A stretch of DNA of 64,000 nt, taken from the NCBI GenBank assembly GCA_029560585.1, contig JAKQKQ010000174.1, positions 1 to 64,000 on the forward strand. Direction: 5' to 3'. Source of the DNA: Verrucomicrobiota bacterium (GTDB taxonomy: Bacteria > Verrucomicrobiota > Verrucomicrobiia > JADLBR01). The notes below the pieces were generated by a model. It was not told the DNA's origin, did no database searches, and saw only the letters and a list, made by a program, of their open reading frames with translations. Below are positions 32,170 to 43,479 of this stretch, piece after piece (position 1 is the stretch's first letter; each line of letters opens with the position of its first letter). The translations under genes and the position numbers were made by a program.

Positions 32170-33570
32170 TCACAGCGACGACTTGATCGCCTCAATGATC
32201 GGCTGGGGCAGGATGCCCAGGGCCAAAATGCCTCCGACCAGCGCGACACAGAGCGCGCGGGTGGGGAAGTCGATGACGACCGCGGGGCGGTCGGCGGGAT
32301 CGCGAAAGAACGTCTCGCGCACCACGGCCAGATAGTAGTAGATGGCGATGACGGTGTTGACGACGGCGATGACGACGAGGGCCAGGTGGCCCTGGTTCAA
32401 GGCCGCCTTGAGTAGGGCGAGCTTTGCGGTGAATCCGGCGAAGGGAGGTATGCCCGCCAACGCAAATATGCCGACGCCCAGGGTGACGGCGAGCATGGGC
32501 GAACGGCGGTGCAGGCCCGCCAGTTCCTCCATGGCGACGTTGGTGCCGTCGCGGGAGACGCGGCAGATCGCCACGAAGCATGCGATCACCATCAGCGCGT
32601 ACGCGAAGATATAGTATATGGCCGCAGTGTAGCCATCCCGATCCATGGCGACGAAACCCAGGAGGGCATAGCCTGCGTGCGCGATGCCCGAGAAACCGAG
32701 CAGGCGCTTGAGGTCATTCTGCATGAGGGCAACGAGGTTGCCATAGAACATCGATGCGCCCGCGAGGACCGCCATGAAAAGGGAAAGCGTTGGATCGCCA
32801 GGTGAGGCGAGCGACACGAAGCGCACGAGGACCGCGACCGCGCCGATCTTCGGGAGCGACGCGATGAGGCCCGCTGTTTCGTTGGAGGAGCCCTGATACA
32901 CGTCGGGTGTCCAGAAGTGGAATGGGAAAACCGCTAGCTTGTAGTACAAGCCGCAGAAGGTCATCGCGAGACCGACGAGCGCCACGGGCGAGCCGAGAAA
33001 AGGCTGTAGCCGGGGCATCAGATCCCGGAGCGATGTGGTGCCGGTAAGCCCGAACAAATAGCTTAACCCGAAGAGCATGATGCCATTGGCCGCTATGCCA
33101 AACATGATGTATTTGATGGCCGACTCCATCTGGGTGCGCTGCCCCTCCCGTTCTCGCCGCATGGCCACCATCACGTACAGGGGGAACGCCGAAAGCTCGA
33201 GGGCGACCACGAGGGTGATCACGTCGATGCTGCTGACCAGCATCATCAGGCCGCTGACGCTGGCCGTCAGGAAGAAATAGTACTCCGGTTTGATCTCACC
33301 CTGGATGTCGGGGAGTTTCCCCTTCATCAGCAGCACGAGAACAAACCCTATGGCGAATGCCAATTTGAGGATCTGAGAGAACAGGTCGACGCGGTAGGCG
33401 CCATCGAAGAGCGTGGCCTCTTGGCCCAAGGTAACGGCGGCAGCCAGCACGGTCGCGGCCGATGTCACCAGGGCGATCACGCGCGCCTCGCGGGTGCGCC
33501 CCTTGCCGAGGGTGACGAAGAAGATCGCCAGCGCTCCGAGCAGGATCAGGGATTCTGTGAGGAAGGGCAT
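32170..33570 (-). CDS. nuoN: NADH-quinone oxidoreductase subunit N
   Basis: Antiporter-like proton-pumping subunit of complex I, 466 residues with about 14 membrane helices. The TM5 glutamate lies in TLVVALELSAFPLYVM and the TM7 lysine in YYKLAVFPFHFWTPDVY; LIASLPKIGAVAVLVRF and GFSGIAHAGYALLGF follow. It is the last gene of the minus-strand nuo operon, 31 bases after nuoM. A hairpin directly after the stop separates it from the convergent RAYT gene. Confidence 0.95.
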   Translation of the reverse strand: MPFLTESLILLGALAIFFVTLGKGRTREARVIALVTSAATVLAAAVTLGQEATLFDGAYRVDLFSQILKLAFAIGFVLVLLMKGKLPDIQGEIKPEYYFFLTASVSGLMMLVSSIDVITLVVALELSAFPLYVMVAMRREREGQRTQMESAIKYIMFGIAANGIMLFGLSYLFGLTGTTSLRDLMPRLQPFLGSPVALVGLAMTFCGLYYKLAVFPFHFWTPDVYQGSSNETAGLIASLPKIGAVAVLVRFVSLASPGDPTLSLFMAVLAGASMFYGNLVALMQNDLKRLLGFSGIAHAGYALLGFVAMDRDGYTAAIYYIFAYALMVIACFVAICRVSRDGTNVAMEELAGLHRRSPMLAVTLGVGIFALAGIPPFAGFTAKLALLKAALNQGHLALVVIAVVNTVIAIYYYLAVVRETFFRDPADRPAVVIDFPTRALCVALVGGILALGILPQPIIEAIKSSL

Positions 33571-33601
33571 AGGTCTCAGGGTCGGCCGGTCGTTCGCGGG
33601 C

Positions 33602-35098
33602 TCATGGTCTGGGCACGAGCCCTTGGCCAGCCTGTTGGATCAGTTGATCCACGCTGGCGTGGAGCACGCGCATGAAGGGTTCGGGATTCAGTCCGATCCA
33701 GAAAACAAAAATGACAAGGGGGGCGAGCGCGCAGACCTCGCGCAGATCGATGTCACGAAGTCCGTCGTGCCCGGGGTTGCTCGTTCCGCCCCAGGCGACC
33801 CGCTGCAGCATGCGCAGGTTATAAGCGGCGGAGGCCACGACCCCCGGAACCGCGAGCAGGGTGAGCCACCGGGAGTACTCGAAGCTGCCCTTGAGCACGA
33901 GGAACTCGCCGATGAAGCTGTTCGTGCCCGGAAAGGCCAGCGACGAGAGGGCGAACACGCCGAAACACGTGATGAAGGCGGGCATGTGTTTGCCGATGCC
34001 GGCCGCGGCGCCCAGCTCGCGGGTGTGGAGCCGCTCGTAGAGCATGCCAACGGCCACGAACAGTGCGCCCGTCGTGACACCGTGATTGATCATCTGCAGC
34101 ATCGCGCCCTCGATGCCGGATCGCGTGAGCGTGAAGATGCCAAGGGTGACGAAGCCCATGTGCCCCACGCTGGAGTAAGCGACGAGTTTCTTGAGGTCGG
34201 ACTGCGCCAGGGCGGCAAAACCGCCGTAGACGATCGCCGCAACCGAAATGCCCGCGACCCACGGCATGAAGATGGCGGTGGCGTTGGGCGCCATGGGCAG
34301 GCAGAAACGCAAGAACCCGTATCCGCCCATTTTGAGGAGGATGCTGGCCAGCAGGACACTGCCGGCCGTGGGGGCCTCCACGTGCGCCGCCGGCAACCAC
34401 GTGTGGAAGGGCACCATAGGCACCTTGATCGCAAATGAGATGGCCATCGCCAGAAAGATCCAGCACTGGAATCCGACGGGATAGCCCCGGCCCATCATGC
34501 CAGGGATGTCGAAGCTCCCGGTCTGCAGCCGGAGCGCGATCAGCGCGACCAGCAGGAAAATTGATCCCGACATCGTGTACACGAAGAACTTGATCGCCGC
34601 GTAGATCTTCCTCGGGCCGCCCCAGACCCCGATCATGACGCTCATGGGGATTAGCATCGACTCCCAGAAGACGAAGAACAGGATCGCATCCAGCGCGCAG
34701 AAGACGCCGATCATGGCCGACTCCATGATGAGGAGGCAGACCATGAATTCCTTGACCCGCGTCTTGATATAGCGCCACGAGGCGAGGACGCATATGGGCA
34801 TCACCAGGGTCGTGAGGAGCACCAGCAGCAGGCTGATGCCATCGACGCCGAGGGAATACTCGATCTTGAGGGCCGGGATCCAAGGGTGGCGTTCGACGAA
34901 TTGGAACGCGGCGGTCGAGACGTCGAATCTGGAATACAGGGGGAGGGAGAAGGCGGCGTTGGCCAGCGTGAACAGGAGTGCCCACCACCGCAGGGCGCGG
35001 TCGCTCCGGAGCGCGACGGCGATGGCGGCCGCGGCGAGCGGCGCGAAAATCAGTATGCTCAGCACGGGGATGGCCCCGGTATGCGTTTCGGCGGTCAT
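33602..35098 (-). CDS. nuoM: NADH-quinone oxidoreductase subunit M
   Basis: Antiporter-like pumping subunit, 498 residues. NuoM signatures are EYSLGVDGISLLLVLLTTLVMP, the TM5 glutamate in FFVFWESMLIPMSVMIG, the TM7 lysine in FAIKVPMVPFHTWLPAAHVEAPTAG, the TM8 lysine in LLKMGGYGFLR and YSSVGHMGFVTLG. The ATG at 35098 overlaps the stop of the preceding subunit gene (ATGA). The frame continues upstream, but that part overlaps the neighbour and is not conserved. Confidence 0.95.
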   Translation of the reverse strand: MTAETHTGAIPVLSILIFAPLAAAAIAVALRSDRALRWWALLFTLANAAFSLPLYSRFDVSTAAFQFVERHPWIPALKIEYSLGVDGISLLLVLLTTLVMPICVLASWRYIKTRVKEFMVCLLIMESAMIGVFCALDAILFFVFWESMLIPMSVMIGVWGGPRKIYAAIKFFVYTMSGSIFLLVALIALRLQTGSFDIPGMMGRGYPVGFQCWIFLAMAISFAIKVPMVPFHTWLPAAHVEAPTAGSVLLASILLKMGGYGFLRFCLPMAPNATAIFMPWVAGISVAAIVYGGFAALAQSDLKKLVAYSSVGHMGFVTLGIFTLTRSGIEGAMLQMINHGVTTGALFVAVGMLYERLHTRELGAAAGIGKHMPAFITCFGVFALSSLAFPGTNSFIGEFLVLKGSFEYSRWLTLLAVPGVVASAAYNLRMLQRVAWGGTSNPGHDGLRDIDLREVCALAPLVIFVFWIGLNPEPFMRVLHASVDQLIQQAGQGLVPRP

Positions 35099-42581: not shown

Positions 42582-43108
42582 TCCGGCTTCACCTCCGGCC
42601 AACGGCGCTTCCCGGTGAGTTTCTCCTCGAGTTTCAGAATGCCCTCGATCAGCGCCTCGGGGCGCGGCGGGCACCCCGGGACGAACACGTCCACGGGAAA
42701 GAGCTTGTCCACGCCCTCGACCACCGAATATTGGCCGGGGAAGACAAACGGCCCGCCGGAAATGGCGCAGTTGCCCATCGCGATGACCCACTTTGGCTCC
42801 GGCATCTGGTCGTAGAGAGTCTTGATGGCCGGCGCCATCTTCTTGGTGACCGTCCCCGCCACGATCATCACGTCGGCCTGCCGCGGCGAGGGCCGGAATA
42901 CCTCCGCGCCGAAGCGCGAGAGGTCAAAGCGCGATGCGCCCGCCGCCATCATCTCGATGGCGCAGCAGGCGAGTCCGAATGTCAGGGGCCAGAGCGAATT
43001 CGCCCGGCCCAGCGCCAGCAGATCGTCCAGCCTTGCGAACTTGACTATCTGGGCGAGGTCGTCTTGGGAGCAGACGCCGTTGCCGCCTCCACCCTCTTGA
43101 GCTTCCAT
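42578..43108 (-). CDS. nuoB: NADH-quinone oxidoreductase subunit B
   Basis: 176 residues. It binds cluster N2 through the paired Cys of LACCAIEMM, plus GNCAISGG and [39 protein letters not shown] is also conserved. The ATG at 43108 is chosen because AGGAG (43120-43116) lies 7 bases upstream. This makes nuoB overlap nuoA by 64 bases, unusually long but supported by the ribosome site; ATG 43129 is the alternative. Confidence 0.95.
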
Positions 43109-43479
43109 TCGAAGACTCCTTTCTTCCATGCGTAGACGATGACCAGGGACAAGATGCCAACGAAAACTAGCAGCTCCACGAGATCGCGCACCGGGAAGAC
43201 CCGGTCGTAGATGATGGCCACCGGCACGAGATAGAGCACGTCGACCGCGAACGCCACGAACACCAGCGCGTACAGGTAGTACACGGCGCTGTACCGGATC
43301 CACGCGTCGCCGATCGGGTCCATGCCGCACTCGATGTACTGGCCAGTCTTGTTCGCGGTCTGCCGCGTCTTGCGCGCCGCCAGCAGGTGCGCGATCAGCA
43401 CCGGGCCGATCGCGAACGCCAGCCCCCCGAGGCAAAACGCCGCCACGTAGATAATATCACTTATCAAAGCGTCGCTCAT
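43045..43479 (-). CDS. nuoA: NADH-quinone oxidoreductase subunit A
   Basis: 144 residues, three helices. The NuoA hallmark is the loop [40 protein letters not shown], with the Cys involved in active/deactive transitions in other organisms. The C-terminal tail is longer than usual and overlaps nuoB. It is the first gene of the 13-gene operon, so the promoter should lie in the 43480-43750 region; no ribosome site is evident before the ATG. Confidence 0.94.

What the first reader, a model, noticed from the sequence alone, without database searches (positions are those of the whole stretch)
32170..43479. Complex I operon without NuoEFG but with four antiporter-type subunits
The operon reads nuoA-B-C-D-H-I-J-K, then a 491-residue MrpD/NuoL-like protein, an 86-residue membrane protein, a 598-residue NuoL/MrpD-like protein, nuoM and nuoN. 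Canonical complex I has three antiporter subunits (L, M, N). All four here keep the TM5 Glu. Genes are joined by overlaps of 4 bases or so, so all products are probably in one complex. Complex I variants with an additional NuoM-like subunit have been described in other lineages. This one instead adds an MrpD-type module at the L position and lacks the NADH module, suggesting an alternative donor such as ferredoxin and a larger pumping stoichiometry.
Basis: partly seen in the sequence, partly recalled or inferred. Interest (0 to 1): 0.72.

Follow-up and report, generated by a model that had tools for sequence, protein, structure and literature searches.

The report
Complex I with doubled Mrp-type tip
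A Verrucomicrobiota bacterium carries, beside an ordinary respiratory complex I, a second complex I that lacks the NADH-docking part and has two antiporter-like proteins where one usually sits; the layout is a variant of a known form, and one of the two has lost a residue thought essential for proton pumping.

Summary
In detail: one minus-strand 13-gene operon (32170-43479) reads nuoA-B-C-D-H-I-J-K-D1-sm-D2-M-N, with no nuoEFG and no true nuoL. It is no lone oddity. The D1-sm-D2 trio in place of NuoL is the mark of rhizobial 'green complex I'; the rhizobial block J-K-D1-sm-D2-M-N is collinear (D1 55%, D2 54% identity). The NADH-less version recurs, mainly in Verrucomicrobiota and Desulfobacterota (D directly followed by H in 59 of 89 loci examined). 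The same genome has canonical complex I genes elsewhere (EFG, true NuoL) and no match to the Mrp subunit MnhE, so this is a separate second complex, not an Mrp antiporter. Two corrections: NuoL is replaced, not supplemented; and D2 keeps the TM5 Glu but has Asn for the TM7 Lys in 89 of 89 loci, so extra pumping is doubtful. D2's lateral-helix region is 12-22 residues longer than in the canonical NuoL compared, as a cap spanning four modules would need. Homologues of 2-oxoacid:ferredoxin oxidoreductase genes (5 loci) and an Nfn/GltD-like flavoprotein gene (7 loci) beside the operon in relatives, not in the window, favour ferredoxin, or NAD(P)H through that flavoprotein, as donor. Known kind, new variant.

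The parts
43045..43479 (-). nuoA
   Evidence: BLAST to annotated rhizobial NuoA (32%) and gene order; not scanned with Pfam
42578..43048 (-). nuoB; four Cys (28, 29, 94, 126), as expected of cluster N2 ligands (recalled)
   Evidence: PF01058 and NF005012
42054..42590 (-). nuoC
   Evidence: PF00329, TIGR01961
40930..42057 (-). nuoD; no CxxC, so not a hydrogenase large subunit
   Evidence: NF004739 436 bits over cut-off 360
39925..40923 (-). nuoH
   Evidence: PF00146 371 bits
39479..40009 (-). nuoI, two CxxCxxCxxxC motifs; true start probably the Met near 39922
   Evidence: PF00037/PF12838
38952..39482 (-). nuoJ
   Evidence: PF00499
38620..38964 (-). nuoK
   Evidence: PF00420
37141..38616 (-). 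D1: antiporter-like subunit of an MrpD-named family, with TM5 Glu, TM7 Lys, TM12 Lys (E143, K227, K403)
   Evidence: NF006236 821 bits
36884..37144 (-). sm: 86-aa protein, two hydrophobic stretches, conserved C-terminal EDYYD; between D1 and D2
   Evidence: no Pfam/NCBIfam match
35095..36891 (-). D2: antiporter-like subunit of another MrpD-named family, with lateral helix; Asn198 in place of TM7 Lys
   Evidence: NF009310 758 bits
33602..35110 (-). nuoM (single; E150, K229, E402)
   Evidence: TIGR01972 611 bits
32170..33570 (-). nuoN (E125, K211, K383)
   Evidence: TIGR01770 335 bits

Best explanation
A second respiratory complex I of the 'green' type without the NADH module. NuoB-C-D-I carry electrons from a soluble low-potential carrier to quinone (Fe-S motifs present; donor site inferred). 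The membrane arm is H-A-J-K-N-M plus the Mrp-family trio D1-sm-D2 in the place of NuoL. D1 takes the pumping place next to NuoM. D2 is the distal cap, whose long lateral helix ties the arm together; because its TM7 Lys is Asn it probably does not pump in the usual way, so the number of full Glu/Lys modules (D1, M, N) stays three. The donor is most likely reduced ferredoxin made by 2-oxoacid:ferredoxin oxidoreductases, or NAD(P)H through an Nfn/GltD-like flavoprotein. Shown: gene content, families, order, residues, conservation, neighbours in relatives. Inferred: assembly, position of D2, donor, stoichiometry.
For: Families and order; rhizobial green locus collinear for J-K-D1-sm-D2-M-N; M and N group with canonical NuoM and NuoN (support 100 each), D1 and D2 each form an own group outside NuoL+MrpA; trio contiguous 84 of 84; D2 Asn in 89 of 89, D1 TM7 Lys in 82 of 84 (two not covered) and TM12 Lys in 84 of 84; TM15-TM16 interval 92-94 in 33 of 33 D2 of alignment A3 against 72-80 in 14 of 14 canonical NuoL of the class and 78 in E. 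coli; predicted lateral helix 74 against 53 residues; korA/korB homologues beside the operon in 5 loci and an Fer4_20/Pyr_redox-type flavoprotein beside it in 7 (two of both); POR_N gene in 12 of 12 class genomes with D2 against 128 of 176 without; canonical complex I genes elsewhere in the genome; no MnhE.
Against: The 64-kb window has no korA/korB or such flavoprotein; the operon's neighbours there are two PDZ_3 proteins, one with a trypsin-like domain, and a PQQ-repeat protein. No korA/korB hit was found beside the loci named Desulfobacterota or Deltaproteobacteria, and only one weak flavoprotein hit (L135, 38% over 183 residues); about ten of them share housekeeping neighbours. The POR_N contrast is weak (one-sided p 0.026), the genomes are related and the gene is common (found in 10 of 14 control genomes). 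Borrowing of NuoEFG is not excluded. In the tree D1 and D2 fall on the same side as NuoL+MrpA (88, open), not with MrpD, so 'MrpD-type' is a family name, not a shown descent. Canonical NuoM of Verrucomicrobiota also lacks the TM7 Lys (14 of 14), so Lys loss need not stop pumping. Both lateral helices are low-confidence in the models.
Confidence: 0.58

Rival explanations
1. Four working pump modules: D2 also moves a proton, using TM8/TM12 Lys, so the complex pumps more per two electrons.
For: D2 keeps TM5 Glu (87 of 89; one gap, one not covered) and TM12 Lys (89 of 89) and a TM8 Lys in the rows shown; canonical Verrucomicrobiota NuoM lacks the TM7 Lys in 14 of 14 too; PMC7419157 (passages) holds that the TM7/TM5 pair regulates, and that the proton paths run by the TM8 and TM12 Lys.
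Against: The same paper calls the TM7 Lys absolutely conserved and essential in Mrp and complex I; Asn in 89 of 89 D2.
Confidence: 0.3
2. The operon product borrows NuoEFG and is an NADH dehydrogenase after all.
For: Rhizobial, Nitrospirota, Fidelibacterota and one betaproteobacterial locus have EFG (in L136 only G is seen); the genome has an EFG set on C317 and further NuoF-family matches on C256 and C109; in L060 nuoE-nuoF homologues lie about 5 kb downstream of nuoN, and L112 and L135 show E-F and G-like hits near the trio or operon.
Against: C317 EFG sits with its own nuoB-C-D; D is followed directly by H in 59 of 89 loci.
Confidence: 0.17
3. D1-sm-D2 form an independent Mrp-type antiporter that merely shares the operon.
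For: In four other loci (L100, L104, L108, L109) the trio follows a third antiporter-like subunit and no nuo redox genes; L100, the one scanned, has MnhE, MrpF, MrpG, MbhD, MbhE, MnhB and a C/K-type subunit upstream; a haloarchaeal Mrp operon ends in D1- and D2-like subunits.
Against: No such partners in the window operon and no MnhE match in the genome; without the trio the complex would have no L-type end.
Confidence: 0.05

Closest known systems
[quoted passage not shown] not held, known here through passages of PMC9040806, PMC7415380 and PMC4967309)
   Same: Two MrpD-like subunits replace NuoL; block J-K-D1-sm-D2-M-N collinear; D1 55%, D2 54% identity; D2 Asn (L040) and the 92-residue lateral-helix interval (L040, L041) too.
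   Different: The rhizobial locus has NuoEFG, with I and H on the other strand; the window has A-B-C-D first, H-I inside and no EFG.
Complex_I_3 of Candidatus Manganitrophaceae (PMC9040806, passages)
   Same: Two MrpD-like subunits in the L place.
   Different: It has two NuoM (five antiporter-like subunits) and a 26-residue insert in the lateral helix of MrpD2 relative to rhizobia; the window has one NuoM and no such insert relative to rhizobia.
2M complex I of Nitrospira (Chadwick et al. 2018, not held; through passages of PMC9040806 and PMC7784846)
   Same: Four antiporter-like subunits.
   Different: Its extra subunit is a second NuoM beside a NuoL.
Mrp antiporters with extra antiporter-like subunits (haloarchaeal operon on NZ_CP119800; loci L100, L104, L108, L109)
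   Same: D1 and D2 homologues, with sm in the bacterial ones.
   Different: Mrp partner subunits (seen in L166 and L100), no redox subunits.
NADH-less 11-subunit complex I (cyanobacterial and archaeal type; recalled)
   Same: No NuoEFG; donor ferredoxin or F420H2 in the studied cases (recalled).
   Different: Those have a single NuoL-type subunit (recalled).

Membership tests
Green complex I | Two MrpD-like subunits replace NuoL | tested here: met
Green complex I | Ordinary NuoM and NuoN beside them | tested here: met
Green complex I | NuoEFG, as in the rhizobial locus (PMC4967309 speaks of its NuoG) | tested here: not met
   absent in the window operon, present in L040
Canonical complex I (NDH-1) | NuoL orthologue and NuoEFG in the cluster | tested here: not met
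Nitrospira 2M complex I | Two NuoM subunits | tested here: not met
   one NuoM only
Mrp antiporter | Partner subunits such as MrpB/E/F/G | tested here: not met
   none among the operon genes; MnhE family 0 matches in own genome; B, F, G not searched genome-wide
Group 4 [NiFe]-hydrogenase | CxxC nickel ligands in the large subunit | tested here: not met
   NuoD has no CxxC
Antiporter-like pump module, for D2 | TM5 Glu, TM7 Lys, TM12 Lys/Glu all present | tested here: not met
   all present in window D1, M and N; D2 has Asn at TM7
Ferredoxin:quinone oxidoreductase | Ferredoxin reduces the complex | not testable with these tools
   genomic context only

The most novel reading that the evidence does not exclude
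D1-sm-D2 is a portable distal end that moves between complex I and Mrp antiporters. D2 is a terminal module that has traded its TM7 Lys for Asn and so serves as a non-pumping, or differently pumping, cap, with the 86-aa sm as a dedicated linker subunit. If so, these complexes are a natural experiment on whether protons leave complex I through every antiporter-like subunit or mainly through the last one.
Probability: 0.35. Interest if true: 0.65.

Novelty: new variant of a known kind. Interest (0 to 1): 0.47.

Why it matters
How many protons complex I moves, and through which subunits, is still argued (PMC7419157 names two open models; passages). A widespread family in which one antiporter-like subunit, probably the distal one, has lost a residue held to be essential, with an extra module beside it, gives a direct test by mutation and by measuring H+/2e-. 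It also warns against counting antiporter-like genes as pump stoichiometry. The NADH-less form, beside ferredoxin-linked enzymes in some relatives, suggests a ferredoxin-driven respiratory entry point in Verrucomicrobiota.

Tried and rejected
Independent Mrp antiporter: rejected for the window though a cluster of that kind exists in relatives. 2M type: rejected, one NuoM. Hydrogenase: rejected. The idea that the haloarchaeal D1, 582 aa, is a D1-sm fusion: looked at and rejected, its tail holds a His/Asp-rich stretch unlike sm. A first hand count of about 28 extra residues in the D2 lateral helix (note 1) was corrected: interval 12-22 longer by alignment, predicted helix 21 longer. Donor clue in the flanks of Desulfobacterota-type loci: none; the neighbours scanned in L066, recurring by BLAST in about nine others, are a Mur ligase, RimP, NusA, YlxR, IF-2, RbfA and DHH proteins, and MreB. 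PDB comparison of the D2 model gives NuoL, NuoM and MrpD chains at Z 41-45, close together, so it does not place D2. An MnhB query for Mrp references found four haloarchaeal plasmid records; an MnhE query gave the ones used. Papers: Degli Esposti 2016, Chadwick 2018 and Degli Esposti 2015 are not held, so I cannot say that the NADH-less form or the D2 Asn is unpublished; the listings of searches showed no title or abstract start on either, and I read passages (one outline) of only eleven papers.
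Full report
What is there. The window's minus strand carries nuoA-B-C-D-H-I-J-K, a 491-aa protein (D1), an 86-aa protein (sm), a 598-aa protein (D2), nuoM and nuoN between 43479 and 32170, in overlaps or gaps of a few bases. NCBIfam names the families of D1 and D2 monovalent cation/H+ or Na(+)/H(+) antiporter subunit D, both well over the curated cut-offs; M and N score as NuoM and NuoN. There is no nuoE, F or G in the operon. NuoI has two CxxCxxCxxxC motifs, NuoB four Cys, and NuoD no nickel-binding CxxC, so the redox part reads as a quinone-reducing complex I.

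Whose genome. Nearest named relatives are Verrucomicrobiota MAGs (JADLBR010000288, D2 90% identical). The assembly has 7.06 Mb in 336 contigs, 95.7% complete and 4.2% contaminated by the tool's figures, so an absence is not final. It also has canonical complex I genes: nuoB-C-D-E-F-G on C317, a nuoH on C323, nuoI-J-K-L-M-N on C175; that they work together is inferred. Further complex-I-like large subunits lie on C213, C254, C304 and C131, not studied. The Mrp subunit MnhE has no match.

Relatives. Of 39 genomes searched first (own included), eight pass the D2 family cut-off; the other seven show the same gene order without EFG, one cut by its contig end. Of 89 loci examined, D is followed directly by H in 59; EFG are present in six (rhizobial L040, Nitrospirota L120, Fidelibacterota L122, L131 and L136, betaproteobacterial L130; in L136, cut by its contig start, only G is seen); the remaining 24 are cut, Mrp-type or differently arranged. 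Of the 59, the taxonomy file assigns 17 to Thermodesulfobacteriota, 14 to Verrucomicrobiota, 6 to Myxococcota (records titled Deltaproteobacteria), 1 to Pseudomonadota and none to 20. In L060 and L067 the operon starts at H with about 5.8 kb of upstream sequence without A-D. L060 has nuoE/nuoF homologues about 5 kb beyond nuoN, L112 has E-F hits after D2, and L135 a G-like hit before nuoA. D1-sm-D2 are contiguous in 84 of 84 loci with both. Two loci (L093, L096) have K-M-D1-sm-D2-N.

What kind of thing. On an Ensifer plasmid the order is J-K-D1-sm-D2-M-N-A-B-C-D-E-F-G, with I and H on the other strand. The mBio 2022 paper (PMC9040806; passages) describes green complex I of certain rhizobia as two MrpD-like subunits replacing NuoL, with four ion-pumping subunits. 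A review (PMC7415380; passages) reports it in about 70 Alphaproteobacteria and up-regulated in symbiosis. The window's complex has the same membrane arm without the NADH module.

Tree. A 90-row tree (quick search, SH-aLRT only, midpoint root) puts M with canonical NuoM (100) and N with canonical NuoN (100), NuoL with MrpA (98), and D1 and D2 as two separate 19-row groups (100 each), each with Mrp-cluster members inside and the haloarchaeal Mrp copy outermost. D1, D2 and NuoL+MrpA share one side (88, drawn open), apart from MrpD. So no NuoL orthologue is in the operon, and the MrpD name of D1 and D2 is a family label. The trio seems to have changed hands between Mrp and complex I; the nested place of the bacterial Mrp copies suggests transfer from complex I to Mrp, with an Mrp origin before that (inference).

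The residue that breaks the symmetry. E. coli positions mapped by alignment show TM5 Glu in all four window subunits. TM7 Lys is present in N, M and D1, but D2 has Asn198. Across the loci counted, D2 has Asn in 89 of 89, TM12 Lys in 89 and TM5 Glu in 87 (one gap, one not covered); D1 has TM5 Glu in 81 of 84 (one Arg, two not covered), TM7 Lys in 82 (two not covered) and TM12 Lys in 84. The Mrp structure paper calls these lysines absolutely conserved and essential, but gives the TM7/TM5 pair a regulating role rather than a place in the proton path (PMC7419157, passages). Against a simple 'dead pump' reading, canonical NuoM of the Verrucomicrobiota genomes compared lacks the TM7 Lys in 14 of 14 and has two Lys in TM8, so the residue can be lost in a presumably working subunit.

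The lateral helix. The interval between the last two transmembrane helices is 92-94 residues in 33 of 33 D2 of alignment A3 (and in 10 of 10 of A1, rhizobia included) and 72-80 in 14 of 14 canonical NuoL of the class, 78 in E. coli. Predicted helices are 494-567 (74 residues) for D2 (pLDDT 84 overall, 51-80 in ten-residue blocks there) and 526-578 (53) for the genome's own NuoL (79 overall, 47-64 there). The helix is longer, as a cap that must reach across one more module would need; the confidence of both stretches is low. PMC9040806 reports a further 26 residues where a fifth module is present, which fits the trend.

Donor. In G019, G092 and G112 (the first two of one family) korA-korB homologues lie 0.3-0.5 kb upstream of nuoA on the same strand; L064 has a korB homologue 2.4 kb upstream, and L110 korA-korB homologues 1.5 kb downstream of nuoN (identity to G019's own 78-84% in G092, 34-49% in the others). 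In L060, L062, L063, L064, L067, L091 and L110 a flavoprotein gene lies within about 250 bases of the operon on the same strand; Fer4_20 and NAD(P)-binding domains were tested in L063 and L064, and the other five are 48-58% identical to that of L064. All 12 class genomes with D2 have a POR_N gene against 128 of 176 without (one-sided Fisher 0.026; the genomes are not independent, and POR_N is common). The window genome has POR_N genes on C109 and C236, the latter with korA-korB, not next to the operon. I therefore rate ferredoxin first, NAD(P)H through the flavoprotein second, borrowed NuoEFG third.

Verdict. Observation confirmed; interpretation partly right. It is a known architecture in a NADH-less variant, with a residue change in D2, not mentioned in anything I could read, that makes the pumping claim doubtful and testable.

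Noticed in passing
L050, L143-L154, L156 (canonical nuoM of class genomes): Canonical NuoM lacks the TM7 Lys in 14 of 14 and has a KK pair in TM8, whereas the window's NuoM keeps the TM7 Lys.
   Followed up: partly
L100:4222-11794, also L104, L108, L109: Mrp-type cluster (in L100 MnhE, MrpF, MrpG, MbhD, MbhE, MnhB, C/K-type, D) that ends in the same D1-sm-D2 trio, where the NuoL-like part of MrpA would be expected.
   Followed up: partly
L166:6497-14486 (Halomontanus rarus plasmid): Haloarchaeal Mrp operon with three antiporter-like subunits, the last two D1- and D2-like with no gene between; outermost in both tree groups.
   Followed up: partly
36884-37144: sm is a widely conserved protein with two hydrophobic stretches and a C-terminal EDYYD motif, without a Pfam or NCBIfam match.
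   Followed up: partly
L062:185-16292: The NADH-less operon and its flavoprotein gene lie between further nuoC-nuoD and nuoI-nuoH fragments, as if inserted into or beside another complex I operon.
   Followed up: no
44118-47095: Two adjacent PDZ_3 proteins upstream of nuoA, one of them with a trypsin-like domain, so HtrA-like.
   Followed up: no
31475-32068: Plus-strand 197-aa ORF that looks like a REP-associated transposase just downstream of nuoN (from reading the translation, not tested).
   Followed up: no
L112:6-3778: On this short Desulfotignum contig the D2 gene is followed by nuoE- and nuoF-like stretches.
   Followed up: no
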